Origin: Lichtheimia corymbifera B2541 | Taxonomy: Eukaryota; Mucoromycota; Mucoromycetes; Mucorales; Lichtheimiaceae | Length of the DNA stretch: 64,000 nucleotides | Assembly: GCA_000697475.1 (NCBI GenBank) | Contig: JNEU01000762.1 | Coordinates: forward strand, 1-64,000 | Direction: 5' to 3' | Shown here: piece after piece, positions 3,341 to 45,478 of the stretch | Numbering within the stretch: the first letter of the stretch is position 1 | Layout of the letters: every line of letters starts with the position of its first letter | The notes under the pieces: generated by a model | Database searches by the model: none | What the model was told of the DNA's origin: nothing | The model's input: the letters and a program-made list of their open reading frames with translations, nothing else | Translations under genes and position numbers: made by a program

Positions 3341-3493
3341 ATTGAATGAAAGAGGCAACAAGGATAACTGTGTCATTGTATTCTGGGTTGCTGCCGCCGT
3401 AAACATCTTCATCCATAATTGGAAAATACGGTAGTTGCTGCGTGATTTGACTTGAGCATCCCAATACCATACATGCTTGTAAAGCTCCTTTCG

Positions 3494-5046
3494 TCAATGC
3501 CATCCCAATCCATCACCATCCTCAGCCATATCCACGTGATATGATCCATCCTTCCTGCTGACAACGTGCCAAGTAATCCAACCAACATTCCAGGATCTCT
3601 TATCTCTGCTCTTCATTGCCTCCATCCATAACCATTGCAAGTCCAATATTGCTGCTGATACCCTTCCTTCCCCATTCAAGTGTTGGTATCTTTCTTGACT
3701 ATTTTCTATCGCGGCTCAACCAGGTGAATATTGCTTGTACTGCAGGATACTTAAAAGGTTGATATGGTGTATCATTCAAAGGAGTCCATGTGTATTAAGC
3801 AAGTTGCAACACGTAAATAAAGCGGCTGCTATAGAAAGACTATATGCTGTCCACGTGCAAAGGCTGGAACACAAGTTGCTGCAAGTAGCTTGAGATAATG
3901 GAGTAAAGACCGTGCTAATAGCAACTGCTGGTACGTTTGGTCGCGGCAGAGAAGTGTGCAAGAGCGTGTGTTGTAGTAGAATGACAAGGCTGTGAACGCT
4001 GTTCGAGACAATGGAGTAAAGACCTTGCTAATGGCAACTGCTGGAATGAATGCTGTTACGTTGATTGTGGTGGAGGATTGTACAAAAGAAGGTGGTGTGT
4101 CAAGAAACGCGGGTGTTGTAGTGGGGGTGCACACGCCCATGCACTTGCCATTCAGTCAAAGACAAGCGGGTCAAGACATTCGTAGCATTGACACGGTGAA
4201 TTGAAGAAGGACAATCGCTCGTAGGTGGTGGTTGTAGTTGAATGCACCAACAGTTGAGAATGGGAGGAGGAAGAGGGAAGAGGCTGAGAGTGGAAGAAGT
4301 GGAAATTAAATAGATCAGGCACCGTCCCGACAGATTCATGCACACTATAAATTAATCCATAACCTTGATTGCCTCTCTCGAACCTCAAACTTTCACACAA
4401 TATGCTCTAGAACATGCTGATCAACTTTGTATTAATAAAGAAGTCATGCTTCATTTGAAAATTTCGAAAGGTAGAGCATAATGTGGGATTGACTATAACG
4501 CATGAAAATTGGGAAAGCGCCGGATTTATGAAAAAGTCATTTAGTATGTGGTTTCTTGGGATTCCCCATCTCGCACTTGAAACTTGGTCAGAAGGTTCTC
4601 TGGGACATGTTGATCAACTCCATTCATTTAAAAACCGCATGGTTCATTATGACCATTTTGAATGCCGGCCAGCCCAAAAGTAGGATAAAGTAGGGTCGGC
4701 GCTCCTGTTCCCCGAGACTGCCTACCTCGAACCTGAAACTTCCACACAACACCCTTTCGACCACGCCGAGCAATTTCGTTCCCATAAAGACCCCAGAGTT
4801 CATTATGAAAACATTGAATGTAGGAGAGACGACAAATGGATGGTAACGTAAATAGGGTGTACGGTCGTGCGCGCCGATATTGCTGGTGGGGACGTCGAAA
4901 CTTGGTCAGGAGGTGCTCTCGGTCATGCTGATCAATATCGTTCTCATAAAGCCTCTACACATCACTATGGAGATTTGGAGAAACAGGCACCTTTATGTTT
5001 TACATATGCTGTAACCATGATGCTATATGAAAGGTGGCCTTTGTTC
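3494..5046 (+). repeat. Left arm of 4-kb palindrome
   Basis: Near-identical inverted partner of 5653-7205. The outer part (about 3780-4290) is related to the inverted repeats flanking the KH-like gene at 55.4-55.6 and 58.3-58.6 kb. Its inner part consists of degenerate tandem units. Confidence 0.85.
4370..4990 (+). repeat. Degenerate tandem repeat, units of about 155-200 bp (mirrored in the right arm)
   Basis: A pattern recurs beginning near 4375, 4575, 4730 and 4890. It reads CGAAACTT..., then CATGCTGATCAA, then a TTCATAAA-like stretch, then a TTCATTATGA-like stretch. The spacing is about 155-200 bp. Diverged further units lie in the centre at about 5200-5290 and 5440-5500. The right arm carries the same series in reverse. 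The units are too diverged to be a recent satellite. Confidence 0.65.
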
Positions 5047-5716
5047 ATTGTCAAGTAGGTAGACCCTGATAGAGCCGAAGATGCAGACGGACTTCTTTGT
5101 GCAACACAGCTCATTTGCATGAGTACTTCCCAATGAACAAAGACCACTCTCCATATAGCATCACGCTTACAGCGTATGTAAAACATAAAGGTGCCTGTAT
5201 CTCTAAATCTTACAATGAAAAGCGGGGTCTTTAATAGAACAAAGTTGCTCGTCGGGTTGAAGCGAACCTTGTGTAGAAGTTTCACGATCGTCGTGGCCAT
5301 TCTCAGATTCACCCAATGTCACCACCAGCCAAACTTGAAAAAAAATTCAAGAGGTCGACCCACGATCCACTTTGGCTGGTGGTGACATTGCGAAATCTAG
5401 GATCGACGAGCCTGATCGTGAAACTTGCACCCAAGGTGCGCTTCACCCCGCCGCGCAACTTTGTTCGATTGAAGGCCCCACGTTTCATTGTAAGGTTTAG
5501 AGATACAGGCACCTTTATGTTTTACATATGCTGTAAGCGTGAGGCTATATGATAAGTGGTCTTTGTTCATTGTCAAGTAGGTAGACTCCGATAGAGCCGA
5601 AGATGCAGACGGACTTTGTGCAACACAGCTCATTTGCATGATACTTCCCAATGAACAAAGGCCACCTTTCATATAGCATCATGGTTACAGCATATGTAAA
5701 ACATAAAGGTGCCTGT
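4985..5716. repeat. Two nested hairpins at the centre of the palindrome
   Basis: Hairpin 1 has stems at about 4985-5045 and 5133-5203. Hairpin 2 has stems at about 5500-5570 and 5646-5716. All four stems carry the same AGGCACCTTTATG...TTTGTTCATTG segment or its complement. The loops (about 5050-5130 and 5573-5645) are copies in the same orientation rather than mirrored. The axis itself (about 5314-5390) is a smaller perfect stem, CAATGTCACCACCAGCCAAA, with a spacer of about 37 bp. Confidence 0.75.
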
Positions 5717-7205
5717 TTCTCCAAATCTCCATAGTGATGTGTAGAGGCTTTATGAGAACGATATTGATCAGCATGACCGAGAGCACCTCCTGACCAAGTT
5801 TCGACGTCCCCACCAGCAATATCGGCGCGCACGACCGTACACCCTATTTACGTTACCATCCATTTGTCGTCTCTCCTACATTCAATGTTTTCATAATGAA
5901 CTCTGGGGTCTTTATGGGAACGAAATTGCTCGGCGTGGTCGAAAGGGTGTTGTGTGGAAGTTTCAGGTTCGAGGTAGGCAGTCTCGGGGAACAGGAGCGC
6001 CGACCCTACTTTATCCTACTTTTGGGCTGGCCGGCATTCAAAATGGTCATAATGAACCATGCGGTTTTTAAATGAATGGAGTTGATCAACATGTCCCAGA
6101 GAACCTTCTGACCAAGTTTCAAGTGCGAGATGGGGAATCCCAAGAAACCACATACTAAATGACTTTTTCATAAATCCGGCGCTTTCCCAATTTTCATGCG
6201 TTATAGTCAATCCCACATTATGCTCTACCTTTCGAAATTTTCAAATGAAGCATGACTTCTTTATTAATACAAAGTTGATCAGCATGTCTAGAGCATATTG
6301 TGTGAAAGTTTGAGGTTCGAGAGAGGCAATCAAGGTTATGGATTAATTTATAGTGTGCATGAATCTGTCGGGACGGTGCCTGATCTATTTAATTTCCACT
6401 TCTTCCACTCTCAGCCTCTTCCCTCTTCCTCCTCCCATTCTCAACTGTTGGTGCATTCAACTACAACCACCACCTACGAGCGATTGTCCTTCTTCAATTC
6501 ACCGTGTCAATGCTACGAATGTCTTGACCCGCTTGTCTTTGACTGAATGGCAAGTGCATGGGCGTGTGCACCCCCACTACAACACCCGCGTTTCTTGACA
6601 CACCACCTTCTTTTGTACAATCCTCCACCACAATCAACGTAACAGCATTCATTCCAGCAGTTGCCATTAGCAAGGTCTTTACTCCATTGTCTCGAACAGC
6701 GTTCACAGCCTTGTCATTCTACTACAACACACGCTCTTGCACACTTCTCTGCCGCGACCAAACGTACCAGCAGTTGCTATTAGCACGGTCTTTACTCCAT
6801 TATCTCAAGCTACTTGCAGCAACTTGTGTTCCAGCCTTTGCACGTGGACAGCATATAGTCTTTCTATAGCAGCCGCTTTATTTACGTGTTGCAACTTGCT
6901 TAATACACATGGACTCCTTTGAATGATACACCATATCAACCTTTTAAGTATCCTGCAGTACAAGCAATATTCACCTGGTTGAGCCGCGATAGAAAATAGT
7001 CAAGAAAGATACCAACACTTGAATGGGGAAGGAAGGGTATCAGCAGCAATATTGGACTTGCAATGGTTATGGATGGAGGCAATGAAGAGCAGAGATAAGA
7101 GATCCTGGAATGTTGGTTGGATTACTTGGCACGTTGTCAGCAGGAAGGATGGATCATATCACGTGGATACGGCTGAGGATGGTGATGGATTGGGATGGTA
7201 TTGGC
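5653..7205 (-). repeat. Right arm of 4-kb palindrome
   Basis: Reverse complement of 3494-5046 with very few differences. One difference is near 7190-7205, where TATTGGCGAG replaces the left arm's ATGACGAAAG equivalent. Identity falls off outside this point, which marks the edge of the homogenised segment. Confidence 0.85.
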
Positions 7206-7360
7206 GAGAGGGCTTATATCTTTGACGAGAGGCGGTTTGTCGCCATGGATGATATTGGAATATTGGAGTCAAGACACACATAGTAACTAGTTGCAATCAT
7301 GGATGAAGATCTTGATGACGGTAGCAACGAAGGATACAATGATACAATAATGGTGTTCAC

Positions 7361-9569: not shown

Positions 9570-9930
9570 GCAACCTCAATCTGATGGGAAATTGGGGACT
9601 CCTTTGTAGATGACATAAGTACACGCGCAATTAAGATATTGGACGGGACCAAAATCACTTTTCTGGGAAACAGTTATCAACAACGTGACCAAATCGAGAA
9701 AGTTGTCAAGGTAGCGGGTGCAAAGGTATATGGCAAAAGATATCCAACGGAGGGCAAGAACGACAAGTCCAAGATCGTGAATCAGCTTGACAGTGACCAT
9801 ATTGACCGAGAGCATACAATATGCATTGTGACCAATGAAGAAACATTCAAGGGGAAAAAGTCGAAGTTCAAATATGCACAAGTACGCACAATGAAGTGGC
9901 TAGTGGAGGTGCTAGCTGTGGTGGTTCAGG
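9570..9930 (+). pseudogene. Remnant D of the LAGLIDADG/zinc-finger/BRCT gene (last BRCT-like domain only)
   Basis: The frame from about 9630 reads KITFLGNSYQQRDQIEKVVK, then KIVNQLDSDHID, then TICIVTNEETF, then AQVRTMKWLVEVLA. This matches the final exon of the complete copies (QLTFIGNPY..., KVVHDLTSNEID..., TICIVTDEKTF, AQVRTMRWLIEVLA) at roughly half of residues. The match is lost after EVLA, where the complete copies continue HQREINRI and stop; here the frame runs on into unrelated sequence. A stop codon lies upstream of the domain. The piece converges on the PUT2 3' fragment at 10100-10293, the same geometry as in the complete units. It is the oldest copy by divergence. Confidence 0.75.
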
Positions 9931-10099
9931 CACTACATCTCCGACGTGCTTGGTATAGGTGTAGCTCAGATTAGATTTATGATTCTTGGCTCTATCTTTC
10001 ACTTATAAAACATTCAGAACACCTACCGAGTCTCGCGTACTCACTAACCATTATTAAAACACATGATCAATGATGATTATTTGATGTTGGTTTTCTATA

Positions 10100-10293
10100 T
10101 ACAATTATAATGGAACGGAGTTGGCAATATATAGCCACGTTTCTTTGTCATTCTACTAAAGGCAAGATGGATGCGGACATTTACACTGGTTGGAGGGTAA
10201 GCAAAGCCTTCAATAGGAACAAAGTTCTCCTTGATAGAGCGCATGGAGACGAAGCGAGTGAGCAAAGCAAAGCTACCAGCCCTGTCATTGGTA
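10100..10293 (-). pseudogene. Displaced 3' end of PUT2 (fragment 2), decayed
   Basis: On the minus strand this encodes SGTNDRAGSFALLTRFVSMR, then SIKENFVPIEGFAYP, matching the last 38 or so codons of the intact PUT2 gene. Similarity continues into the 3' untranslated region (CCGCATCCATC, TTTAGTAGAATGACAAAGAAAC, TTGTATATAGAAAA), with a short unrelated insertion. A one-base deletion in the run of C before the final codons shifts the frame and removes the normal stop. Homology begins abruptly at the codons for SGTN (equivalent to 16624), where it abuts the truncated nuclease copy A. It is therefore much shorter than fragment 1 at 21265-21987. Confidence 0.85.
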
Positions 10294-13200
10294 CCAGAGC
10301 GTTCCACCGAATTTTATTGCTTAAACAGCTTCATCAAAGCATTCAAATGTACAAATGTGAATCTCAAGTATGTATACATTATGCTATCTCATGGATCATT
10401 CATATCGTCTAATTACTGTCATTGTTTATTATAATAGCTTCTACGCTAGCCCACATCGAAAGCATGCAAAGGAACGCTTCGCCGCTGGTGACTATGGTGT
10501 TGTTGTGGTCAGGTTTTCATCACGTGAACTGGGCGAGCTATTGGACATGACGGGTTGTTATATATCACGTGTTAAGAGCGCCCACCTTGACCTTCTCGCT
10601 AAAACATTTCCTGACGACTTGCCAAATCGGAGTCTTCATATCATCCTCTTTATCTTGTCCTATTATGCAGCTGACGGGTGTTTGCTTTGGCGACCTGAAC
10701 AAGACGTGGAGAATCCAGGGCGAGTACTGGCAGGTATCAATCTAGCAGCCAGAGACAAGACAATCATTACATGGATGCAAACCGAATTGGCAAAACTGAA
10801 TGTCAAGTCCAACATCGTGGGCCAAGAGACTGATCCAGTCTACAACCTCAACATTGGCAAGAGAGAGCTGGTGCGAAACAAGGATCTATTTCTCAATGCA
10901 ATGACCCAGACTCGTGTGGCTCAAATTCCATTGCATCACAAGCTTGTTGACCTTGAGACAATGCTGACGACTGGTATTCTCCCATATGGCGACACTCCAG
11001 CAGCAAGCGACGTGTTTTTCTATGACTATTTGGGCGTGGATGGGTTGGCAGACCCACTTACAAGAGTCATTGGTCAGTAAGTATACTCATTGCTTTATTG
11101 ATATCATCAGTACTAATGTTTGCCTTGCTTAGGGATACGTGCGTATTGCGTTTGACGGCGTTGAATCAGTTCCTACTGGGTCTTGGTATGGCACCGGTCA
11201 AGAACACCCGCGAATGCCACCCAATCGACATAGCAGCCTACTTGCGATCCATGGATCCTACAAAGAATGACCTGGCCAAAAAGTATCATGACATGTGTAT
11301 GCAGAGGATTCGTGACAACATGCCCAACAATGTTGTCAATGAAAGGGTAAGCCATCCAAAGGATTTATTCAAGTGCTGGGATATTCATTTGCCAATGTTT
11401 TTAGGGACGACTGCATCGCTGTGACCTCTGCACCAAGTCATATCACATACCCGACATGCTGATAGCTCACAAAGTGAGAGAACACGGGGTAAGTAACCAG
11501 CTCATCTATGCCTGAATTGAAACTAATTCATTATGTCATCATCAGCACAAGGTAACGATCCAACATCCAACGATGTATATGATGATACTGACTGCTATTA
11601 GGGCGAGGAGTGGAAATGCGATGAATGCAGCATGATACTATCTACAAAGACTTCTCTACGGCTGCATAAATTCAATATCCATGTAAGTGCTATCTCCAGT
11701 GATCGCATTGTTTCATGTTCTAATAGCTTTTATGTAGTCCGGGGAGGTCACATGTGAAGAATGCAACAGATCATTTGAAAACTATCGAGTTTATTTCGCC
11801 CATAAAGTCGTCTTCCACCAAGTAAGTAATATATCGCAATCAATTTGGACCAAGAACTAAATCGCGTGGCTATGTCTAGTGTCAAGAAATTGAGTGCCCT
11901 TGGGCGGATTGCAATGAGAGATTTACAACAAAGAAGCGCTTTTACCGCCACATACATAATCACAACTGCGTAAGTATGTCTACGTATATCTTGGTGCTGC
12001 TTATTAACATCATTGGTTCATACATAGGCACAAAACAAGCTGGCATGCCCAGTGGAAGGATGTCCTCGGCTGTTTGCTCGTCCCGACCATCTGCGAGAAC
12101 ACGTAAATACCATACACAAGGTAGTATCTATTTGCAGAATTACATATCAAGGCCTTATTTTCTTACTGGATGATATATTACGATGCATATAGAAGGAGGT
12201 CATTCCTTGTCGGGTTGATGGCTGCCCTAAGACATTTTTGAGCAAAGGACAAGAATACACCCACCATCAACGTATGCACGTAGTAAGTACTTGATGACTC
12301 TATCCATAGGTATGTTGCTAATAGTGGTGTGAATAGAGACGACATCATTGTACTTACCCCGATTGTGAGGCATCTTTTGGCAAGCCTTCAGATTTACAAC
12401 GACACGTCCTGTGCAACCATGAAAACCCGGATTTTTCGGATGTTTTGATTGAGGAGGAGGCTTCAAGCATAGAACTGCAAGAGCTAGTGGATCAGTTGGT
12501 TACCGGCAGTTCGAAAAATGGGAAAAGAACAGCGGCAGCGGCTGAATTGTCATCTCCTACCAATGTTGTCAAGAAGAAAATTGGCGCCATGGATCAAATC
12601 CTGACCCAGTCTCATGCAAGCGCTGATAACATACCAAGAATCGCGTTCTCCAATGTACCGATGGTAAGGTTACTCGCGATCTAGTTACCATTTTTTCGTA
12701 TTGCTAACGTTTCCTTTATCACAGCATGACCAGCTGGTATTCGTTGAGATGCTCAGGAACTCTCCATTGCATGCCACCGTAATTCTTGACAAGTCCAATA
12801 TCGAAGAAGCAACCCATATTATCACCTATGTCGAGGATCCATCAACAATGCGCACGCCATCATTCCTTTATGCCATCAATGACAGCAAGATGCACATTGT
12901 AAACGCAAATTGTAAGTCGTATCATGTAACCAATTGACTGTTTATTGATCCAACAATGTTATAGGGATTGCTGATAGCATAGCCAATGGCAGATGGATGG
13001 ATGAAGAGCCCTATAGGACAGCTATGCCACGCAAAAATGTAAGTATCAATGAAAGAGCGCGGATGATCATCACTTCGGCTAATATATATCTTCAAGGTTT
13101 TACAAGGCATCCAATTGACCTTTATTGGTAATCCGTACCTTTTGCGGTGTGTGATTGAGCGAGTATCAAAGGTTTCTGGAGCGAATATCTGGGGGAAAAG

Positions 13201-13405
13201 ACCTGCATGGCAAAGTAGACTGGACGCATCCAAGATCGTACAGGATTTGACAAGCAACGAGATTGATCCCAACATCACCATTTGTATTGTCACTGACGAG
13301 AAGACGTTTGTTCACAAGAAATCCAAGCTCAAGAATGCCCAAGTTCGCACAATGAGATGGCTGATTGAAGTTCTTGCTCACCAACGAGAGATAAATAGAA
13401 TTTGA
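10288..13405 (+). pseudogene. Copy A of LAGLIDADG/zinc-finger/BRCT nuclease gene, 5'-truncated
   Basis: Homology to copy B begins at RSTEF (10288) and continues through every later exon: 10438-11076, 11133-11346, 11405-11488, 6-nt microexon 11546-11551, 11602-11682, 11738-11821, 11880-11969, 12028-12120, 12193-12282, 12337-12663, 12725-12911, 12965-13038 and 13097-13405. Exon lengths equal those of copy B. The frame is open to the stop. The second LAGLIDADG-like motif (ILSYYAADG), seven C2H2 fingers and both BRCT-like domains are intact. Exon 1 and most of exon 2, with the first motif (FLGFFCGDG in copy B), are missing; PUT2 fragment 2 lies there instead, in opposite orientation. An in-frame ATG at 10243 inside antisense PUT2 sequence could give a chimeric start. 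Intron sequences are also similar to copy B, so the copies separated recently. Confidence 0.85.
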
Positions 13406-14902: not shown

Positions 14903-16740
14903 ATGGCTTACACTCAAACTCCCTCGCTCGCTCAATTCAAGCTCCCTGTTATCGAAAATGAGCCTATGGTATGTATATCAGGGCATGTGTGTGTATATAT
15001 ACGCGTGAATGTATATACACGTAATGCATGTTTGTTTACTCAGCATGACACTCATTCCCATTTTTTTCTCTTGTAGCTCAACTATGCTCCTGGTTCCCCT
15101 GAGCGTCAAAAGCTTGAAGCTGCTCTCGAGGAGATGCGTGCTCAAGGTCCCTATGAGGTCCCTGTTGTGATCAACGGTGAAAAGATCTACACTGGCAAGA
15201 CCAACAAGCAACTCAACCCCTCTGACAAGAGCGTTCTTTGCACCTACCATGAAGCTGATGCTGCTTTGACCCAAAAGGCTATTGATGGTACCCTTGCTGC
15301 TAAGGCTGCTTGGGAATCTCTTCCTTTCAACGACCGTCTTGCTGTCTTCCTTAAGGCTGCTGACTTGCTTTCCTCCAAGTACAGGTATGTATTGAAATCA
15401 TGGTGAAGGATGGAATAAAAAATGGGATGGCATGTACTTATATATATCTTGACTATAGATACAAGATGATGGCTGCTACCATGTTGGGTCAAGGCAAGAA
15501 CGCTTGGCAAGCTGAGATTGATGCTGCTGCCGAGTTGTGCGATTTCTTCCGTTTCAACTGCAAGTACGCTGAAGAGTTGTATCAACAACAACCTCCCAAG
15601 AATGCTCCTGGTGTCTGGAACCGTGTTGAATTCCGTGCCCTTCCTGGTTACACCTTGGCTATCACTCCCTTCAACTTCACTGCCATTGCTGGTAACTTGC
15701 CTGGTGCTCCCGCTTTGATGGGTAACGTTGTTGTGTGGAAGCCATCTCCTTCTGCTGTCTACTCCAACTACCTTGTTTACCAATTGCTCGAGGAAGCTGG
15801 TCTCCCCGCTGGTGTCATTCAATTCGTTCCAGGTCCTGCTGAGGAAATTTGTGCTACCGCTCTTGCTAGCCCAGACTTCTCTTGCCTTCACTTCACTGGC
15901 TCCACTCACGTTTTCCGTAAGTTGTGGAAGGATATCGGTAACAACATCGACAACTACAAGAGTTATCCTCGTATTGTTGGAGAAACTGGTGGCAAGAACT
16001 ATCATCTGCTTTCCACGGATCTCGATGCCTCTGGTGTCCGTCATGCTGCCCTCCAAACTATCCGTGGTGCTTTTGAGTTCCAAGGCCAAAAGTGCTCTGC
16101 TACCTCTCGTTGCTATGTCCCTGAGAGCAAGTTTGAAGAGTTCAGGGGTCACCTTCTTGCTGAGCATGCTAAGATCACTCAAGGTCCTGTTCAAGAATTC
16201 CAACACTTTATGGGTCCTGTGATCAACCAATTTGCCTTTGATAAGATCAAGTCTTACATTGACTATGCTGCCAACGATGCTGAGTGCGAAATCCTTGCTG
16301 GTGGCAAGTACGATGACTCCAAGGGTTACTACATTGAACCTACCATCATCCTTACCAAGAACAAGTTCACCAAGACCATGGTTGAGGAAATCTTCGGTCC
16401 TGTTATTACCATCTATGTCTACGAGGATGCTGAATTTGAGGAAACTTGCAAGTTGATTGGTGAGACCACCCAATATGCTCTTACTGGTGCTGTCTTTGCC
16501 AAGGAACGTCACAACGTTGTCAAGGCATCCAACTTGCTTCGCAACACCGCTGGTAACTTTTACATCAACGACAAGTCTACTGGTGCTGTTGTTGGTCAAC
16601 AACCCTTCGGTGGTGCTCACGCTTCTGGTACCAACGACAAGGCTGGTAGCTTTGCTTTGCTCACTCGCTTCGTTTCCATGCGCTCCATCAAGGAAAACTT
16701 TGTTCCTATTGAAGGCTTTGCTTACCCCTCCAACCAGTAA
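14903..16740 (+). CDS. PUT2: Delta-1-pyrroline-5-carboxylate dehydrogenase (proline catabolism)
   Basis: Three exons (14903-14968, 15077-15384, 15459-16740) give 551 residues, the usual family length. The enzyme oxidises pyrroline-5-carboxylate/glutamate semialdehyde to glutamate with NAD, the second step of proline breakdown, normally in mitochondria. Visible aldehyde dehydrogenase features are the FNFTAIAGNLPGAPALMGN cofactor segment, the HFTGST loop, the catalytic-region motif GETGGKN, the catalytic cysteine in GQKCSATSR, EEIFGPV, and the C-terminal QPFGGAHASGTNDKAG. Both introns lie in the 5' half; the 3' half from 16018 is one open exon. That 3' part, with about 100 bp of untranslated region, recurs at 21265-21987 and partly at 10100-10293. 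By the homing model the present 3' end was supplied by the adjacent element. The gene converges on nuclease B, 280 bp away. The start is the first ATG after the TATA box. Confidence 0.95.
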
Positions 16741-19700
16741 ATATCCGCATCCATCATGCTTTAGTAGAATGACAAAGAAACAGCTTTATCCCATATGATT
16801 GTATATAGAAAATCAAAATAAAACCATTAGCATTCATCATTTATACTTGCCGTTTTTATTCATTTGCTTATAGCATGTGAGGGTGCGCGTATCTTTTATA
16901 ATATGTGGAAGGAAAGGCTAATTGAAAAACTGGGTAGCACCTCTGGTCAGGAATAATCGTAATCTTCTTTTATTGCTTATCTCTAATACTATGGGTTCGA
17001 ACTACTAATATAAATGAAATCAAATTCTGTTGATCTCCCGTTGATGGGCAAGAACTTCAATCAGCCATCTCATTGTACGAACTTGGGCATTCTTGAGCTT
17101 TGGTTTCTTATGAACAAATGTCTTCTCGTCGGTGACAATACAAATGGTGATGTTGGGATCAATCTCGTTGCTTGTCAAATCGTGTACGACCTTGGATGTG
17201 TTTAGTCTACTTTGCCATGCAGGTCTCTTTCCCCAGATATGCGCTCCAGAAACTTTTGAAGCTCGCTCAATCGCATTTCGCAAAGGATACGGATTACCAA
17301 TAAAGGTCAATTGGATGTCTTGTAAGACCTTGAAGACATATATATTAGCCAAACGCACTAATCCTCTGATCATCATGAATACTTACATCTTTGCGTGGTG
17401 TTGCTGCCTTGTAGGGCTCTTCATCCATCCATCTGCAGTTGACTATGCTATCAGCAATCCCTGTAACATTGTTAGACTATTGAGAAGTCAATCGGTGACA
17501 CGATAATACTTACAATGTGTGTTTACGATGTGCATTGTGCTGTCGTTGATGGCATAAAGGAATGATGGTGTGCGCATTGTTGATGGATCCTCAATGTAGG
17601 TGACCACATGGGTTGCTTCTTCAATATAGGACTTGTCAAGGATTATGGTGGCATTCAATGGAGAGTTCTTGATCATCCCAACAAATACTAGCTGATCATG
17701 CTGCGATAAAGAAGAATGTTAGCGGTATGAAAATTGTAAGTAGTTCGAAAGTAATCTTACCACCGGTACGTTGGAGAATACAATTCTTGGTACGTTGTCA
17801 CCACTTGCATGATTCTGTGTCAGGAGTTGATCCATGGCGCCAACTTTCTTCTTGGCAGCATTGGTAGAAGATGGCAATCCGGCTTCTGTCGCTGTTCTTT
17901 TCCCACTCTTCGAATCGTTGGTAGCCAATTGATCCACTAGCTCTTGTAGGTCCTTGCTTGAGGCCTCCTCCTCGACCAAAACATCTGATAGATCTGGGTT
18001 TTCGTGGTTGCACAAGACGTGCCGTTGCAGATCTGAAGGCTTGCCAAAAGATGCCTCACAACCGGGATGAGTGCAGTGATGTCGTTTCTATTCACATCGC
18101 CCATTAATAGCATATTCCGAGAAATCCACCAGGCACTTACCACATGCATCCGTTGATAATGGGTGTATTCTTGTCCTTGACTGTAAAAAGTGGCATCACA
18201 ACCATCGACCCGACAAGGTACTTCTTCTCTCTAAATGAATCATACGTATCGTATAATGAGAAAATAAGGCGTGGTATGCAATTCTGCAAGTAGATACTAC
18301 CTTGTGGATGCTGTCAACATGGTCCCTTAGATGATCGTGACGAAGAAATAACCGGGTGCATCCCTCAATTGGACATTGCAACTTGTTTTCGGCCTGGGTA
18401 TGAATGAATGGTGTTAATAAACAATGCTGGAAGATACAGGAACTACTTACACAATTGTGATTGTGCACATGGCGGTAAAACCTTTTCTTCGTTGTAAACG
18501 TCTTATCACAATGCTCCCAAGGGCACATGATTTCTTCACACTAGATGTATACGCGCAATTTAGTTCATAATCCAAATCGACTGGGGCATATACTTACTTT
18601 GTGCGTTACGACCTTGTGGGAGTAATAAGTGCGGTAGTTCTCGAAGGTTTCATTACATTGCTCACAAGGAATTTCACCGGACTACACACATTTGTTAAAA
18701 CATGCATGAATGCGATCAGTGGAAATAGAACTTACATGAAGGTTGAACTTATGCAGCCGTAACGTAGTCTTTGTTGATAACACCATTTCGCATTCATCGC
18801 ATTTCCACTCCTCCCCCTAAGTGCAGTCAGTATCATCATACATCATTGGATGTTGGATCGTTACCTTGTGCTAATGGTAATATGATGAATTAGTTTCATT
18901 TCAGACATAGATGAGCTGGTTACTTACCCCGTGTTCTCTCACTTTGTGGGCTATCAACATGTCGGGCCTGTGATATGACTTGGTGCAAAGGTCACAGCGA
19001 TGCAGTCGTCCCTAAAACATTGGCAGATGAATATCCCAGCACTTGAATAAATCCTTTGGATGGCTTACCTTTTCATTGACAACATTGTTGGGCATGTTGT
19101 CACGAATCCTCTTCATACACATGTCGTGATACTTTTTGGCCAGGTGGTTCTTTCTGGGGTTGACTGATCGCAAGTAGGCTGCTATCTTGACTGGGTGACA
19201 TTCGCGGGTGTTCTTGACCGGTGCCATACCAAGACCCAGTAGGAAATGATTCAACGCCGTCAAACGCAATACGCACGTATCCCTGAGCAAGGCAAACATT
19301 AGCATTGATGATATGGGTAAAGCAGTGAATATACTTACTGTCCAACCACTCTTGTAAGTGGGTCTATCAATCCATCGACTCCCAGATAATCATAGAATGA
19401 AACATCGCTTGCTGCTGGAGTGTCGCAATATGGGATTATGCCAGTCTTCAATATTGTCTCGAGATCAATAAGCTTGTCATGCAATGGAATTTGAGCCATA
19501 CAGGTCTTTCCAATTGCAGCGAGAAATAAGTCCTTGTGTCGCACCAGCTCCCTCTTGCCAATGTTGAGGTTGTAGACCGGATCAGTCTCTTGGCCCACGA
19601 TGTTGGACTTGACATTCAGTTTCGCCAATTCGGTTTGCATCCATATAAGCATTGTCTTGTCTCTGGCAGCTAGATTGATACCTGCCAGTACTCGCCCTGG

Positions 19701-21264
19701 ATTCTCCACGTCTTGTTCAGGTCGCCAAAGCAAACACCCATCAGCTGCATAATACCATAAGATAAAGAGGATGATATGAAGACCCCGATTTGGCAAGTCG
19801 TCGGGAAATGTTATGGCGAGAAGGTCAAAATCGGCGTTCTTGATGCGGGATGAGGAACAGCCCGTCATATCCAATAGCTCACCCAATTCACGGGAACTGA
19901 ATTCGATCGTAACAACGCCGTAATCACCAGCAGCGTAGCGCTCCTTTACTTCCTCTTGAGGAGGGTGTGGATAGAATCTGTAAAAAATCAAGTAAACAAT
20001 AAGAATTAAGAAATTCCAGTTGACATACTACGTACTTGAGGTTCCTGTTTGTGCATTTAAGAGATTTGATGAAAGTATCCAACCAATAAAACTCTGTCGA
20101 ACGCTGTACAATGCCTCGTTTGTGTTTACAGTTGCAACCATCACCACAAAAGAAGCCCAAGAAACATGATCGATGGACGCTTAGCTTGTCATTCAATATA
20201 CCGATCAACGTGAGGGAATCAGTGGGTGCTTTATGCACTGTGGTGTGCATCATTTGCATGTCGTTTTGGGGTGTGTACGATGTGGTATGTGAGAGCGTAG
20301 GTCTTGTAGTCAGGTACGATCTTTTTGGACGTTTTCTAGCTGTGAGCGTCGGTACATGGGGTACAGGAGGCGTGTTAATATCATGCTGGTCATCGCAAAC
20401 CATATCTTCATCATGGTGGTCGATGTAGTATTCGTCATCGCATATCATGTCCTCATCACTGGGGTCGATGTATTCGTCATCATAGGCCATATCTTCATCC
20501 CCGTAGTCGTTCAATGTGTCAACGCAGGTCATGTCTTCATCATTGTCATGGATGAATTCGTTTCCACATGCCATATTTTGTTCATACAGCGTCGTCTGCT
20601 CAGCACTATCGTCAGTAGCTGTGCTTTCGAATATCATCTTATCGATATCATGCTTAGACGATATTTCGAGCTCGTATTCATCGTACATAGCGTTCACGTC
20701 ATCGTATTCATCATCATCGTCTGATCCATCATCCTCCAGCAATATTTCATCGTAGAACAGAGGGTCGTTTTCCTTTGGTGGGTTGGAACCTATATTATAT
20801 ACGTATCATCGTTATTCATGCACGCTTCTAACATGATGAGCTTTTACATACAAGGCGATTTTTGGGTAGTACTACACCATTCCATCTTGTCATGAATGGA
20901 GTTGAAAGTCGAAAAAAAAGATGAAGGAAATGGTGGTGTGGTGATATTTTATCATTATCACAATACAATGTACCTCATCATGTGATCGTATCAATGGCCA
21001 TTGTCACCATTGTCGAATATACAGAGGAGGGAGCTCCATTCATCTTTATGATCGAATCTGTAACAAAGAGCCTTTGTTCTAACGAAAAAAAGAAGGTCCC
21101 TGCTGCTTCCATTCAGACTGACATCGCCATATATTTGCCGGTCCCAAAACACATGTTGTTTTAATGCACTGCAAATCGGCAACTATATAAATGCATACAC
21201 GTAAAGAATGGAAGGTGTATTCAAGAGTCAAATAATAACATAGTAAAGATATAAAATATGAAAA
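16018..21264. mobile_element. Putative homing element, unit B: PUT2 3' end plus nuclease gene (WHO-like organisation)
   Basis: Position 16018 in PUT2 and position 21265 in the displaced copy begin the same sequence (GATCTCGATGCC). Every following position up to the stop codon (16740 and 21987) keeps the offset of 5,247 bp. The repeat unit is therefore 5,247 bp: 723 bp of PUT2 3' coding sequence, its 3' untranslated region, the convergent nuclease B gene and about 380 bp of nuclease upstream sequence. WHO elements of Torulaspora and Lachancea home into FBA1 and replace its 3' end in the same manner. The present assignment by analogy is inference. Confidence 0.75.
17020..20885 (-). CDS. Nuclease copy B: LAGLIDADG-like, seven C2H2 zinc fingers and tandem BRCT-like domains
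   Basis: Fifteen exons (20852-20885, 20036-20789, 19339-19977, 19069-19282, 18928-19011, 6-nt microexon 18865-18870, 18736-18816, 18598-18681, 18451-18540, 18301-18393, 18141-18230, 17761-18087, 17514-17700, 17387-17460, 17020-17328) join in frame to 1,021 residues. Residues 1-150 are acidic with DEDMxCDDE-type repeats. LAGLIDADG-like helices are FLGFFCGDG (221-229) and ILWYYAADG (335-343), each keeping the DG pair whose aspartate binds catalytic metal in this family. The second is followed by NLAARDKT...WMQTELAKLNVKSN...YNLNIG, which resembles the family's core. Seven C2H2 fingers occupy about 550-760, nearly one exon each. BRCT-like domains fill about 810-1021 (tryptophans in W-IADSIV and RWLIEVL). 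Likely a site-specific nuclease acting on PUT2; fingers would aid DNA recognition. Nuclease assignment rests on motifs; finger and BRCT calls are firmer. This is the only copy with all parts. Confidence 0.8.
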
Positions 21265-21987
21265 GATCTCGATGCCTCTGGTGTCCGTCATGCTGCTCTT
21301 CAAACCATTCGTGGCGCTTTCGAATTCCAAGGTCAAAAGTGCTCTGCCTGCAGCCGTGTTTATACGCCAAAGAGCAAGTATGAGGAGTTCAAGGGCTATC
21401 TTCTTGCTGAACATGCCAAGATCTCTCAAGGAGCTGTTCAAGAGTTCAACCACTTCATGGGTCCTGTGATCAACCAATTTGCCTTTGACAAGATCAAGTC
21501 CTACATTGATTATGCTGCATCCAGCGATGACTGCAAGATTATTGCTGGTGGCAAGTATGATGACTCCAAGGGTTACTTCATCGAGCCTACCATCATTGAG
21601 ACCACCAACCCCCACACCAAGACCATGGTTGAGGAAATCTTTGGTCCTGTGGTGACTATGTATGCATACGATGATGACAAGGTGGAGGAAACCGCCAAGT
21701 TGATTGGTGAGACCACCCAATATGCTCTCACTGGCGCTGTCTTTGCTAAGGAACGTAACAACGTCGTCAAGGCATCCAACTTGCTCCGTAACACCGCTGG
21801 TAACTTTTACATCAACGACAAGTGTACTGGTGCCGTTGTTGGTCAACAACCCTTCGGTGGTGCTCACGCTTCTGGTACCAACGACAAGGCTGGTAGCTTT
21901 GCTTTGCTCACTCGCTTCGTCTCCATGCGCTCTGTCAAGGAAAACTTTGTTCCTATTGAAGGCTTTGCTTACCCCTCCAACCAGTAA
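21265..21987 (+). pseudogene. Displaced 3' end of PUT2 (fragment 1), frame still open
   Basis: 241 codons aligned without net gaps to 16018-16740, with no stop until the native one. It contains the catalytic cysteine motif (GQKCSACSR) but has no start, cofactor-binding half or promoter, so it cannot make an enzyme. Divergence is uneven: the first 32 bp are identical to the intact gene, the next 450 bp differ often (SRVYTPKSKYEEFKGY against SRCYVPESKFEEFRGH), and the last 150 bp plus about 100 bp of 3' untranslated region are almost identical. Just before it, AAATATGAAAA replaces the PUT2 sequence CTTTCCACG, which marks a sharp junction. It is convergent with nuclease C, 242 bp away. Confidence 0.9.
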
Positions 21988-22229
21988 ATATCCGCATCCA
22001 TCATGCTTTAGTAGAATGACAAAGAAACAGCTTTATCCCATATGATTGTATATAGAAAATCAAAATAAAACCATTAGCATTTATCATCTATACTTGTCAT
22101 GTTCGTTTGATTGTTTATAGGATGTCTAAATAGGATGACCCAGCCGCTTTACTTTGCAAATGATTATGGTGTGAAAGCGAACGATTTATTGCTATTCTCT
22201 AATCTCCTATTCGATCCAATGTAATGTAA

Positions 22230-25200
22230 TCAAATCCTATTTATCTCTCGTTGATGAGCAAGAACTTCAATCAGCCACTTGACCGTGCGAACTTGGACAT
22301 TTTTGGACTCCTGGACAAAGGCCTCCTCCTCGTCGGTGACAATGCAAACGGTGATGTTGGGGTCAATGTTGTTGCTCGTCAAGTCTTGAATTATCTTGGA
22401 TGTGTCTATTCCACCTTGCGATGGTGGGCTTTGGGCCAAGATATATGCTCCAGAAACCTTTGATGCTCGCTCAATCGCATGCCTTAGAGGGTACGGATTA
22501 CCAATAAAGGTCAATTGGATACCTTGTAAAACCTTAAAAATATATGTATTAGCCAAAGTGCATGATCATCCGCGCTCTTTCATTGATACTTACATTTTTG
22601 CGTGGCATAGCTGTCTTGTAGGGCTCTTCATCCATCCATTTGCAATTCATGATGCTATCAGCAATCCCTATAATATTGATCAGTACACAGCACATTTACT
22701 CCATCAGGCCACTACTTACACTTTCCACTTACAATGTGCATCTTGCTGTCATTGATGGCATAAAGGAACGATGGCGTGCGCATTGTTGATGGATCCTCGA
22801 CATAGGTGATAATATGGGTTGCTTCTTCGATATTGGACTTGTCAAGAATTACGGTGGCATGCAATGGAGAGTTCTTGATCATCTCGATGAATACCAGCTG
22901 GACATGCTACGATAAAGGAAATGTTAGCAATACGAAAAAATGGTAACTTGATCGAGAGTAATCTTACCATCGGTACGTTGGAGAATGCAATTCTTGGTAT
23001 GTTATCAGGACCTGCATGAGACTGGGTCAGGATTTGATCCATGGCGCCAATTTTCTTCTTGACAGCGTTGGTAGGAGATGACAATTCAGCCGCTGCTGCT
23101 GTTCTTTTCCCATTTCTCGAACCCCCAGTAACCAATTGATCCACTAGCACTTGTAAGTCTTTGCTTGAAGCCTCCTCCTCGACCAAAACATCTGAAAGAT
23201 CCGGGTTTTTGCGATTGCATAAGGTGTGTCGTTGTATATCAGAAGGCTTGCCAAAAGATGCTTCACAACCAGAATGAGGTGAATGGTGTGGTTGCTTTCC
23301 ATCCTATCGCAATGTCATTAATAACCTATCTTCCGATGATTTCATATAAGTACTTACTTCGTCCATACGTTGGTCATGGATGGATTCCTGCTGTTGGCTG
23401 TAAAAGGTGGCATCACAATCCTCCCACTCATACTAGAAATATCCATGTCAATTAGTTCATGTTGCAAGCTGATTGGGATATACTTCTTACTTGATGCATG
23501 ACGGCCTTGTGGGCGTAGTAAGCGTGGTGGTTCTCGAAGGTTTCATTGCACGATTCGCAAGTTTGTTCCTCAGACTACGTATAAGTTGTCAGAACTTGGA
23601 TTATTACCATCACCGAAAATAGTACTTACATGAAGGATGAATTTGTGTAATCCCAACGTGGTCTTTGTTGATAACACCATGCCACACTGATTGCATTTGC
23701 ACTCCTCCTCACCCTAATTCAAGTCAGCATCTTCATATAGATTCTTGGGTGTTGAAACATTACCTTCTCCTAGCAACGAGATAGGGTGGGTTAGTTTCAA
23801 GCCAGATGTGTAATCCTTGGTTGACTTACCTCGTGCTCCTCCACGTTATGTGCTATCAGTATGTCGTGTGTCTGGTATGGTTTAGCGCACAGGTCACAAG
23901 GATGGAAACCCTCCTGAATAAAAGGTGCCGAATGAATCTCTTGGTATTTGGATACAACAAGTCCCTGCTTTACCTTTCCATTGACAATGTTGTCACCAAT
24001 CCTCTTCATACACATGTCAAGATACTTTTTGGCCAGGTCATTCTTTGTGGGATCCATGGATCGCAAGTAGGCTGCTATGTCGATTGGGTGGCATTCGCGG
24101 GTGTTCTTGACCGGTGACATACCAAGACCCAGTAGGAACTGATTCAATGCCGTCAAACGCAATACGCACGTATCCCTAAGCAAGGCAAACATTAGTATTG
24201 ATGATATCAATAAAGCAATGAGTATACTTACTGTCCAATGACCCTTGTAAGTGGGTCCTTCAATCCATCCACGCCCAAATAGTCGTAGAAAGACATGTCA
24301 GTTGCTGCTGGAGTGTCGCCATATGGAGTAATCCCAGTCGTCAGCATTGTCTCGAGATCAACGAGCTTGTGGTGCAAAGGAATCCGAGCCATACGCGTGT
24401 TGTCCATTGCATTGAGAAACAGGCCCTTGTGTCGCACCAGCTCCTTTTTTCCAATGGTGAGGTTATAGACTGGATCAGCCTCTTGACCGGTAATGTTGGA
24501 CTTGACATTCAGTGTCGCCAATTCGGTTTGCATCCAAGTAAGGATTGTCTTGTCTCTGGCTGCCAGATTGACTCCTCCAAGTAGCAATTGTTCAGGTCCA
24601 TAAAGCTGACACCCATTAGCTGCATAAAACGACAGGATAAAGAGGATGAGATGGAGGTCCCGATACGGTAAATTGGCGGGGAATATTTTGCCGAGAAGAT
24701 AAGCATTGCTCGCCCTGCTGGATAAACAGCCTGCCAACTCCAATCGCTCGCCCAATTCACGTGATGAAAACATGGCCGTAACAACACCAAGATCGCCAAT
24801 GTCCTTTGCATGATTCCCGCTTGGATACGTGTGGAAGCTATAAAGCAATGATTAGTCAATGATTTGGAGTATTCACAGTATAGCATAATAAAGATATACA
24901 TACTTGAGATCCATGTTTGTACATTTGAGTGCTTTGATGAAACGGCTTAACCAATGAAACTCGGTGGATGGCTGTACAATGACTTGCTTCTCTTTATAGT
25001 TGTAACCATCGCCACAAAAAAAGCCCAAGAAACATGATCGATGCACGCTTTGCCTGTCCTTCAATATACCAATCAATGTGAGCGAATCGTCGGATGCCCT
25101 TTGCACTGTGGTATGTATCATTTGCTGGTCCGTTTGCTGTGTGAATAGTGGGGTACTTGATATGGACAGTTTTGCCCTCATGGCTGATTTAAGGCGATTC

Positions 25201-25607
25201 TTAGCTGCATTAACGGCTACTTGTGATATGCGAGGAGGCTTCATGTCAACGCTTTGATCATTGCTGGGTTCGATGATGTATTCGTCGTCGCTGATCATAT
25301 TTTCATCACTGTTGTAAACATACTCGCTGACCATGTCTTCATCTTCACTGCTTTTGATGGAATTGTCATCACAGGCCATATCTTCACCACTGTTGTCGAG
25401 ATCAACATGTTCGCTGATCATGTCTTCATCAACGTCCTCCCCTTCCTCCTCTTGTATCATTTCATTGTCGTACAAAAGATCGTCATCTTCCTCTCTTAAA
25501 TTGGGAGCTACATATGTAATGATTCTCGTTATTTCATACTGTACACTGCTGCTTAACATTGGGAGTTTTCACGTACATGGTATTGATTGGGGTGTGCACG
25601 CTGCCAT
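22230..25607 (-). CDS. Nuclease copy C: LAGLIDADG-like/zinc-finger/BRCT protein with altered active site and fewer fingers
   Basis: Thirteen exons (25577-25607, 24904-25507, 24232-24837, 23974-24175, 23830-23913, microexon 23764-23769, 23630-23713, 23491-23574, 23358-23432, 22968-23303, 22720-22906, 22594-22667, 22230-22532) join in frame to 891 residues. The first motif FLGFFCGDG (170-178) is intact. In the second, the aspartate is replaced by asparagine (ILSFYAANG, N286), which would be expected to impair cleavage. Fingers 1-3 keep their cysteine and histidine ligands. The exons for fingers 4 and 5 are absent. Finger 6 has lost its first cysteine (EWEDCDATF), and finger 7 has lost a cysteine and its last histidine (CNRKNPD). 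Both BRCT-like domains remain. The acidic N-terminus differs strongly from copy B. Position farther from PUT2 and the decay both suggest an older insertion. It may still bind DNA. Confidence 0.8.
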
Positions 25608-43388: not shown

Positions 43389-45478
43389 ATGGAAACTGAA
43401 GTACTTACTTGCCGTTGGCAAAACTGTGACAAGACATACCTGGATCCAGAACTACTTTACAGCCACTTGACAAACGACCATGTTGGACGAAAGTCGACCG
43501 GCAACCTTTGCTTGACTTGCCACTGGGAGAACTGCGACGTTACAGTAATCAAGCGAGACCACATTACGAGCCATCTTCGAGTCCATGTTCCTCTAAAGCC
43601 ACACCATTGCAACGTAACTATCAACATTGGCGTTATTAGATGAGTAGCTAACCCAATGATGCTCTCCTTGTAGTTTTGTCCAAAGTCGTTCAAGCGTCCA
43701 CAGGATCTCAAGAAGCACGAAAAGATCCACAGCGAGGAACACATGGCTTCATTACGAAGTCATCAGACACGAGGCAACATTGCACAACCACTTACACCAC
43801 CTCGTCAGCCAGGCATGGATTTGGCTCTTTCGCCAGCTTCGTCTTCATCCGAGCCACAGTTACATCATTCACCAGCATCACGCACACCCGCATCACCGCC
43901 CCAGAGCACATATTCTGAAGGTAACTGGTGTTGGGCGCAGTGTATTTGTATCAACATTATACTGATATGTTATATCTATTTCTGTAACAATAGACAGCGG
44001 TTTGCATCCTTCTCCTTACACTGATGCTTACGACAACTTTGGCCCCAATATTAAGCAACAACAGCCTACATTTGCTACACCCGATCAAATGATCACCGAT
44101 CTTATCTTCCCCGAAGACACCGAGATGAAGGCAGAGTACAATCAAGGTAAACAACGCTATTTGCATGAATCATCGTAAAATGTATCTCATTTGAGCATTT
44201 ATAGACTTTGCCAATCGTTTGTGTATGTTGGAGAATGCACTCAATACTGGATCAGTCAGCCCTCAAGACATGAATATCAACATTGCCGATGAACAAGAGC
44301 TTGCCAATGTCAATGCATGGCTCGCACGATTGACTGGCAGTATCCCCGACAATTATGTGCAACAACAACAGCAGCAGCCAGTCGTACAAGATCAACAAAA
44401 GATGATGTATGATTCAATGTACGGCAATCCAACCACAACAGCATCATCATTTGCATCCACGCCAACTACATATCAACAGACTTCATCTTATGATCCAAGT
44501 ATGATGCTCCAGTCTTTTACTGATCCTACTGCACAACCCATGCATCAGCCACAGCAACCACAACAACAACAGCCTCTACAAGATGCAAACATGTTGTATC
44601 CATCAGCAGAGCAAGACTTGTATGTTCGATCGCACCCTATTCCTCAGCAATCGAATTCAGTACCTCCCATGGATGACGTTGCATACATGAATGGAGGATT
44701 CGACAATATGATGTCAATGGATTATGGAGCACAAGCAATGTCTCTTGGATATTCACCATCACCTATGGATGCAACTGCCGGCAACATTGGAATGACTACC
44801 GGATTCCGACACCATTATACCGCTGTTCCTGACGTCACCATGAATGGCTTCACTCCTGATATTCGCACAGCTACCAATTTCACAAGTGCCAACAGCAAAT
44901 CCAAGCGTAATGCTGCCAAGACACCATCCGATGGTGCACAGGTGGAAAAGGATGAAACCAAGGAGAATATCAAGCCTACCAAAGCTAAGGCAGTTACATA
45001 TGAAGACAAGAAGAATGTGGCAACGTTGTTCAATGTCTTTACCAGTATCGGTGAACCAGGCAAACCAAGTACCACTAGCAAACCAGCCAAGAGTAGCAGT
45101 GAGAAAGAATCCACCAAGGATGCATCATCATCATCATCATCATCAGAAAACTCCAAGCAAAAGAAGGAGGAGGATGAGGAAAAGAGCAAGGCTTCTTCTC
45201 CTGTCAAAAAGGATGTAGTCGACTTACTGGTGAGCGACTTGTCTGAATTGGACATCAAGGAAAAGAGTAAACCTATCGAGGAGCCAAGTCGGAAAGCAGC
45301 AGCATCGTCATCATCAACGCTTTATCCAAGCAGCAATTCCCTTCCAACAGCAGAACGTCATCGTTTATTGTTAAATCAAATCAGGCAATGGGTGAATGAC
45401 AGCTATGCAATGAAATCCAAGACCAAGGCACCTACAACTCCCTCTTATAATAAGACATCATCCGTTTCAGTACAATAA
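43389..45478 (+). CDS. pH-response zinc-finger transcription factor PacC/Rim101
   Basis: Four exons (43389-43613, 43674-43920, 43994-44146, 44205-45478) encode 632 residues. Three C2H2 fingers fill residues 8 to about 100: [40 protein letters not shown] and [20 protein letters not shown]. This order and the first two fingers with C-x4-C spacing are diagnostic for PacC/Rim101, which in other fungi is activated by C-terminal proteolysis at alkaline pH. The rest is disordered, with glutamine-rich stretches ([19 protein letters not shown]), serine runs and acidic/basic tracts. Near the end are LNQIRQWVN and a short Ser-rich tail. The processing site cannot be located by eye. Intron 1 splits finger 3 exactly after CN. 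Confidence 0.92.

What the first reader, a model, noticed from the sequence alone, without database searches (positions are those of the whole stretch)
14903..25607. WHO-like homing element array at a proline-catabolism gene, apparently undescribed in this fungal group
A functional PUT2 gene is followed by [nuclease B, convergent], [open 3' fragment of PUT2], [nuclease C, convergent]. In yeast WHO elements (Coughlan et al. 2020) a LAGLIDADG-type endonuclease related to HO homes into FBA1 and replaces its 3' end, leaving functional target, nuclease, displaced 3' fragments and older nucleases in this same order. Here the target is different, the host is probably Mucoromycota, and the nuclease has a different architecture. 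The sequence shows the layout; homing is inference.
Basis: partly seen in the sequence, partly recalled or inferred. Interest (0 to 1): 0.96.

Follow-up and report, generated by a model that had tools for sequence, protein, structure and literature searches.

The report
Selfish nuclease array replacing gene ends
In a zygomycete fungus, copies of a probable DNA-cutting protein sit between a working metabolic gene and a cast-off copy of that gene's tail, and the same pattern recurs at other genes, which suggests a selfish element that spreads by swapping the ends of genes.

Summary
PUT2 (14903-16740, +) is followed by intact convergent nuclease gene B (20885-17020), an open PUT2 3' fragment starting at the codon equivalent to 16018 (21265-21987) and nuclease C (25559-22233). 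An inverted set (nuclease A, PUT2 tail, relic D) lies upstream. B (1021 aa) has two LAGLIDADG-like motifs, seven C2H2 fingers and a BRCA1-like tandem BRCT. C is identical (896/896 aa) to a Lichtheimia corymbifera protein. Elsewhere in this genome, diverged relatives lie between an aldo/keto reductase gene and its 3' fragment, between a permease gene and its 3' fragment, and beside glutamate synthase sequences. On the PUT2 3' part the displaced end groups with Radiomyces and a paralogue (99/99); the 5' data reject such groupings. Best explanation: a WHO-like, 3'-end-replacing homing element family with a different, apparently undescribed nuclease. Not shown: cleavage, mobility, empty alleles. 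Against: the present PUT2 3' end mostly tracks its 5' half, and a plain-duplication topology is not rejected (p 0.31). It is not filed as WHO/HO: no intein domain was found and the fingers are of another type.

The parts
14903..16740 (+). functional-looking PUT2 (delta-1-pyrroline-5-carboxylate dehydrogenase), 551 aa, 3 exons
16018..16834 (+). part of PUT2 (codons 312-551 plus 3' UTR) that is repeated in the displaced fragment; 16018 is the predicted homing boundary, upstream of FEFQGQKCSA (catalytic-Cys role recalled)
   Evidence: last base difference in the coding part at 16687, identical from there to about 16834
17020..20885 (-). nuclease gene B, 15 exons, 1021 aa, open throughout; convergent with PUT2
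20138..20164 (-). LAGLIDADG-like motif 1 of B (FLGFFCGDG), approximate coordinates
19737..19766 (-). LAGLIDADG-like motif 2 of B (FILWYYAADG), approximate coordinates
18000..19011 (-). exons with seven C2H2 finger-pattern matches of B (residues 553-751), approximate
17020..17800 (-). exons with the tandem BRCT region of B (about residues 825-1021), approximate
21265..21987 (+). displaced PUT2 3' fragment, 240 open codons and stop; its 3' UTR is similar to about 22081
22233..25559 (-). nuclease gene C, 11 exons, 896 aa, identical to P0002 of L. corymbifera; motif 2 AANG, 3 finger-pattern matches
10291..13402 (+). nuclease gene A (inverted set), open, lacks the part matching B residues 1-237 including motif 1
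10063..10307 (-). PUT2 3' tail (35 to 39 codons plus UTR) joined to the truncated start of A
9636..9917 (+). relic D: last BRCT part of a further nuclease copy, 51% identical to B and 56% to A

Best explanation
This is an array of selfish homing elements that work like yeast WHO elements. The nuclease (LAGLIDADG core for cutting, C2H2 fingers for extra site recognition, tandem BRCT perhaps to engage break-repair factors) cuts an allele of PUT2 near codons 312-345 that lacks the element. Repair from the element-bearing chromosome copies in the donor's PUT2 3' end plus the nuclease gene. The recipient's own 3' end is pushed downstream as an open but start-less fragment, which serves as the second homology arm. 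PUT2 stays functional but chimeric, with a 3' end that its own nuclease no longer cuts. Repetition stacks units, youngest next to the gene (B intact, C with an altered active-site motif, A and D truncated and inverted). Related nucleases with diverged cores have done the same at an aldo/keto reductase and a permease gene, and probably at glutamate synthase. Shown by sequence: layout, open nuclease, domain make-up, recurrence at other genes, old divergence of the displaced end under constraint, discordant groupings from 5' and 3' data. Inferred: cutting, its site, homing in zygotes, resistance by sequence difference, the role of BRCT.
For: Layout gene-nuclease-3' fragment at three unrelated genes: PUT2, aldo/keto reductase at C202 and Xan_ur permease at C326; a nuclease beside a GLT1 relic at C309 and a degraded one after a GLT1 3' end at C122. 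Of 4 loci whose nuclease keeps both motif regions, 3 have gene, nuclease and own 3' fragment in this order; the fourth (C309) follows a GLT1 relic. Nuclease: LAGLIDADG_3 at E up to 1 in 6 of 7 family cores, best 1.5e-5; I-DmoI E 0.0094. C202 is open over 666 codons from the core through the fingers. Nucleases kept under constraint: dN/dS A-B 0.21, B-C 0.30, A-C 0.30. Displaced PUT2 end: dS 0.415, dN/dS 0.21, differences 22/18/57 at codon positions 1/2/3, so it diverged largely as part of working genes. 5' data reject {PUT2, L. ornata, Radiomyces, C70} (p 0.0004) and {Radiomyces, C70} (p 0.013), whereas the 3' tree unites the former four with the fragment (92/96) and unites fragment, Radiomyces and C70 (99/99). 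Reductase: a tract of about 390 bp with 85-98% identity to the C414 paralogue ends 73 bp inside the start of the displaced stretch. In L. ornata the nuclease and PUT2 proteins are both listed with a contig of 1,339,498 bases.
Against: No empty allele, no cleavage data, no expression data. The present PUT2 3' end (codons 312-455) keeps the phylogenetic place of the 5' part; only the fragment is odd there. AU does not reject {PUT2, L. ornata, fragment} on the whole 3' part (p 0.31) nor {C70, P0026, P0028} (p 0.24); on codons 312-455 the former has p 0.07. Clades were named after trees were seen. Among 115 outside PUT2 proteins the present 3' end is closer in 90, tied in 5, and the fragment closer in 20. 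L. ornata has nearly the same PUT2 3' end (99.2%), but the search with B gave only one L. ornata protein, a C-like one. The LAGLIDADG match is weak by sequence; B alone reaches LAGLIDADG_3 at E 0.014, below the curated cut-off, and NCBIfam gives nothing relevant. The C326 nuclease is degenerate. Relic loci C330 and C398 (16 kb read each) show no duplicated gene segment that I recognised.
Confidence: 0.78

Rival explanations
1. Unequal crossing-over or segmental duplication: PUT2 happened to lie next to a nuclease-like gene and the unit [PUT2 3' end + gene] was duplicated in tandem, without nuclease-driven homing.
For: Units B and C are collinear; the last 147 bp or so of the two PUT2 3' ends are identical; AU does not reject the matching topology on the whole 3' part (p 0.31); a genome paper on this species describes many tandem duplications (PMC4133162, passages seen).
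Against: At C202 a single nuclease lies between gene and fragment, with no second copy found in the 18 kb compared; the same layout with diverged nucleases at unrelated genes; the fragment diverged under constraint to dS 0.415; the fragment groups with Radiomyces and a paralogue (99/99).
Confidence: 0.13
2. A general mobile element that inserts at many sites and carries captured gene ends, like WHO10 in Torulaspora globosa, rather than an element that homes to allelic sites.
For: Relatives at several genes and relic copies without an identified fragment; WHO10 precedent (PMC7282813 section 12).
Against: At PUT2 four nuclease copies (A-D) and three PUT2 3' ends, counting the gene's own, lie at one gene; at C174, C202 and C326 the fragment belongs to the neighbouring gene itself.
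Confidence: 0.06
3. Not a nuclease element but a zinc-finger/BRCT regulatory or repair gene family amplified by chance near metabolic genes.
For: C2H2 and BRCT parts are better supported by sequence than the LAGLIDADG core.
Against: Two motif copies with Asp-Gly in B, C202 and C309, LAGLIDADG_3 in 6 of 7 cores at E up to 1, best 1.5e-5, and repeated association with 3' gene fragments.
Confidence: 0.03

Closest known systems
WHO elements of Torulaspora and Lachancea (target FBA1; Coughlan et al. 2020, PMC7282813; abstract and sections 6, 10, 11, 12, 13 read)
   Same: Order functional gene, nuclease gene, displaced 3' fragment, older nuclease; clusters; free-standing nuclease gene that may be opposite in orientation to the target; target stays intact; discordant 5' and 3' histories; some members at other genes
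   Different: Target PUT2 and others instead of FBA1; no intein (Hint) domain found; seven C2H2 fingers instead of GATA-like CXXC motifs; tandem BRCT; intron-rich gene; host in Mucoromycota; target genes each with a strongly diverged nuclease
HO endonuclease and VDE intein (features taken from PMC7282813)
   Same: LAGLIDADG-type core; HO also has a zinc-finger part
   Different: No Hint region found; the PDB profile search gave I-DmoI and no intein entry (PI-SceI being in the PDB is recalled); not inserted in a host protein
Intron-encoded LAGLIDADG homing endonucleases such as I-DmoI (its intron origin recalled)
   Same: Weak profile similarity around motif 2
   Different: Here a nuclear, free-standing, multi-domain gene beside its target, not inside an intron of it

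Membership tests
WHO/HO family | intein-like (Hint) region around the LAGLIDADG core | tested here: not met
   No Hint or intein family in Pfam and NCBIfam scans of B and of 7 cores
WHO/HO family | zinc-finger part with 3-5 CXXC (GATA-like) motifs | tested here: not met
   Seven C2H2 finger-pattern matches and Pfam C2H2 hits instead
WHO/HO family | monophyly of the nuclease with WHO, HO and VDE | tested here: inconclusive
   PDB profile search gave I-DmoI as the one endonuclease hit; WHO/HO sequences were not at hand; the structure job failed
WHO-type (3'-end-replacing) homing element | functional target gene, nuclease gene, duplicated 3' fragment of the target in this order | tested here: met
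   PUT2, reductase and permease loci
WHO-type (3'-end-replacing) homing element | 5' and 3' parts of the target gene with discordant histories | tested here: inconclusive
   Groupings seen on the 3' part (99/99 and 92/96) are rejected by the 5' data (p 0.013 and 0.0004), which concerns fragment, C70 and Radiomyces; the present PUT2 3' end in codons 312-455 is not discordant
WHO-type (3'-end-replacing) homing element | allele-specific cleavage of the target by the nuclease | not testable with these tools
   needs an assay
WHO-type (3'-end-replacing) homing element | presence/absence polymorphism among strains | not testable with these tools
   no DNA of other Lichtheimia genomes was reachable
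LAGLIDADG endonuclease | two LAGLIDADG-like motifs with an acidic residue before the last Gly | tested here: met
   B: CGDG and AADG; C202: TADG and DGDG; C309: CGDG and VADG; not in C (AANG) nor C326; LAGLIDADG_3 at E up to 1 in 6 of 7 cores, best 1.5e-5, B itself below cut-off
tandem BRCT protein | profile similarity over both BRCT repeats | tested here: met
   BRCA1 BRCT pair 3pxe E 9.1e-7 over profile 41-198; Pfam BRCT at E up to 1 in 4 of 5 members, best 1.2e-5

The most novel reading that the evidence does not exclude
A separately evolved class of 3'-end-replacing homing elements in Mucoromycota whose nuclease fuses a LAGLIDADG cutter, a C2H2 array that can be re-tuned to new genes, and a BRCA1-like tandem BRCT that recruits or steers the host's break-repair machinery toward copying the element. 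It would have colonised several nitrogen-metabolism genes (PUT2, GLT1, a purine-type permease) besides a reductase, and moved gene ends between paralogues and between genera (Radiomyces, Lichtheimia).
Probability: 0.4. Interest if true: 0.93.

Novelty: new variant of a known kind. Interest (0 to 1): 0.86.

Why it matters
[quoted passage not shown] The same layout with an apparently different nuclease in a distant fungal phylum would mean that replacing a gene's 3' end is a recurrent way for selfish nucleases to live beside conserved genes. It would let the origin of HO-like systems be studied by comparison, offer a natural nuclease with C2H2 targeting and a repair-linked tail, and give a reason for partial gene copies and chimeric genes in these genomes.

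Tried and rejected
Nuclease C as a frameshifted pseudogene: rejected, P0002 splices from the window without a break. Present PUT2 3' end as the foreign part: not supported, codons 312-455 keep the 5' placement. Kinship with inteins/HO by sequence: no hit. GLT1 as a full fourth case: only partial, because C309 holds a GLT1 relic with stops and C122 a degraded nuclease about 1.5 kb after GLT1. C216, C273, C330 and C398 relics: no target gene recognised by eye in the stretches read. A search with a six-row nuclease alignment gave 11 proteins (8000 best-sharing candidates scored, so a capped list): 4 of Lichtheimia, 1 piece of the window itself, 2 from unnamed contigs and 4 other C2H2 proteins. 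The neutral simulation is weak evidence: 25% (48 changes) or 8% (97 changes) of neutral copies would keep no stop. Literature: searches of the held library list no paper that by title and abstract start describes such elements in Mucorales; one search held 62 and held 19 papers, of which 20 and 6 were listed; subscription journals and preprints are not held. A first explicit join of C202 exons had one base missing and was corrected.
Full report
What is there. The window is contig C174:1-64000 of a 34.98-Mb genome. No tool named the organism; nuclease C is identical over 896 of 896 residues to a predicted protein of Lichtheimia corymbifera JMRC:FSU:9682, while nuclease A matches another protein of that strain at 478 of 484 compared residues, so the window is L. 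corymbifera or very near, perhaps another strain. PUT2 is intact, 551 aa; its third exon matches TIGR01236 above cut-off. Downstream follow nuclease gene B, convergent, 15 exons, 1021 aa without a stop; an open 240-codon 3' fragment of PUT2 beginning exactly at the equivalent of 16018; and nuclease gene C. Upstream and inverted lie nuclease A, which lacks the part matching B's first 237 residues, a PUT2 tail and a nuclease C-terminal relic D, in the same unit order.

The nuclease. B has an acidic N-terminus (seen in the sequence), two motifs FLGFFCGDG and FILWYYAADG, seven C2H2 finger-pattern matches at 553-751 (Pfam C2H2 hits) and a C-terminal region. Of seven family cores scanned one by one, 6 match Pfam LAGLIDADG_3 at E up to 1, best 1.5e-5, B itself at 0.014, below the curated cut-off. 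Against the PDB the profile of these cores finds I-DmoI at E 0.0094 and no other endonuclease. A profile of five C-termini finds the BRCA1 tandem BRCT (best E 9.1e-7, spanning both repeats), and Pfam BRCT matches 4 of 5 members at E up to 1, best 1.2e-5. Pfam and NCBIfam show no intein domain in B. dN/dS between A and B is 0.21, B and C 0.30, A and C 0.30. C has AANG in motif 2 and 3 finger-pattern matches and may no longer cut (role of the residue recalled).

Other target genes. Searching the genome with exons of B, C202, C309 and C326 gave relatives at about 34%, 31% and lower identity as well as short relics. At C202 an aldo/keto reductase gene (Pfam hits in two of four pieces tried, and in one of two fragment pieces) is followed by a nuclease and then by a 3' fragment of the reductase; the repeat spans about 102746-101936 and 97369-96610 and crosses the stop codon. 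This nuclease is open over 666 codons from the core through the fingers with 11 GT-AG introns; its BRCT part was read from the frames. At C326 a permease gene (Xan_ur_permease in one of three pieces tried; the purine-type assignment is recalled) is followed by a degenerate nuclease and then a 3' fragment of the permease that lacks one base of the reading frame. At C309 a nuclease with both motifs follows a glutamate synthase relic with stops, and at C122 a degraded relative lies about 1.5 kb after a GLT1 3' end, while the 96% identical GLT1 copy on C324 shows no nuclease in the roughly 3 kb read after it. So of four loci whose nuclease keeps both motif regions (C174, C202, C309, C326), three show gene, nuclease and own 3' fragment. 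At C202 only one nuclease was found, which a tandem duplication of a [3' end + nuclease] unit does not explain. Relic loci C330 and C398 (16 kb each) show no such fragment that I recognised, and C216 and C273 were seen in about 3 kb each.

History of the gene ends. Between the present PUT2 3' part and the fragment dS is 0.415 and dN/dS 0.21; differences fall 22, 18 and 57 on codon positions 1, 2, 3, so the fragment diverged largely under constraint. The last coding difference is at 16687; beyond it the two copies are identical to about 16834. I aligned 116 of the 120 PUT2 relatives listed (four under 500 residues were dropped; 7791 proteins passed the threshold and 120 were listed) with PUT2, the paralogue C70 and the fragment, and built trees from 33 of those 116 plus the own rows. 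On the 5' part PUT2 sits with Zychaea, Circinella minor, Dichotomocladium and Syncephalastrum, C70 with Circinella umbellata and Fennellomyces (93/87), Radiomyces elsewhere. On the 3' part the fragment, C70 and Radiomyces form a clade (99/99); Radiomyces is 85.0% identical to the fragment and 78.8% to the present 3' end. The 5' data reject {Radiomyces, C70} (p 0.013), {PUT2, L. ornata, Radiomyces} (p 0.0039) and {PUT2, L. ornata, Radiomyces, C70} (p 0.0004). Results the other way: the 3' data do not reject {PUT2, L. ornata, fragment} (p 0.31), {C70, P0026, P0028} (p 0.24) or the latter with P0031 and P0037 (p 0.23); on codons 312-455, before the near-identical end, the first has p 0.07, and there the present PUT2 3' end keeps the company of the 5' part; on codons 456-551 PUT2 and fragment are together but without support (47/26). 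Among 115 outside proteins the present 3' end is closer in 90, tied in 5, and the fragment closer in 20. All clades were named after seeing a tree.

A recombination mark at the predicted site. The reductase gene at C202 is 85-98% identical, per 60-column window, to its uninterrupted paralogue on C414 over about 390 bp (103060 to 102673); upstream windows are 38-80%, and downstream ones mostly 60-83% with one of 88%. The tract ends 73 bp inside the start of the displaced stretch (102746). This fits repair of a break near the fragment boundary; it is a single case, found after looking, and could be an unrelated conversion.

Mechanism. I hold WHO-like homing most likely (0.78): cut in an element-free allele, repair from the element chromosome, import of donor 3' end and nuclease, displacement of the old end. 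The layout, the open nuclease, its domains, recurrence and discordant groupings are shown; cutting, site, mobility, resistance and BRCT role are inferred. It works like a WHO element; it is not filed as a WHO/HO member because two defining features were tested and not met. The comparison rests on PMC7282813 (abstract and sections 6, 10, 11, 12, 13).

Novelty. Searches of the held library for homing endonuclease with Mucorales (8 papers), Lichtheimia with homing (5), homing endonuclease with BRCT (16), LAGLIDADG with BRCT (2) and WHO terms (62 holding four of five terms, 20 listed; 2 since 2020 holding three of five) list, apart from the yeast WHO paper and its commentary, none that by title and abstract start describes such an element. 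The L. corymbifera genome paper has no occurrence of homing, LAGLIDADG or endonuclease in its main text (passages). Protein searches found close nuclease relatives in Lichtheimia and in unnamed contigs only, within capped candidate lists.

Noticed in passing
3369-7346: A repeat of about 4 kb that is its own reverse complement (93%), with relatives near the C398, C326 and C70 loci; looks like a fold-back type repeat.
   Followed up: no
own genome C414:225030-225649, C49:9112-9399, C408:108295-108450: Further partial glutamate synthase matches, some with stops, which may be displaced or dead gene ends.
   Followed up: no
L. ornata proteins P0003 and P0010: Nuclease and PUT2 are both listed with a contig of 1,339,498 bases, so the linkage may be conserved in that species; the P0003 motifs read CGGG and AANG.
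   Followed up: partly
Radiomyces spectabilis PUT2 (P0013), codons about 342-461: This stretch resembles the displaced Lichtheimia fragment more than the present Lichtheimia PUT2 end, as if a gene end had moved between genera.
   Followed up: partly
43398-43736: Weak similarity to the nuclease's zinc fingers, probably an ordinary C2H2 gene.
   Followed up: no
targets PUT2, GLT1, permease (window and own genome C309, C122, C326): Three of the four apparent targets belong to nitrogen metabolism (roles recalled), which may say something about when homing occurs.
   Followed up: no
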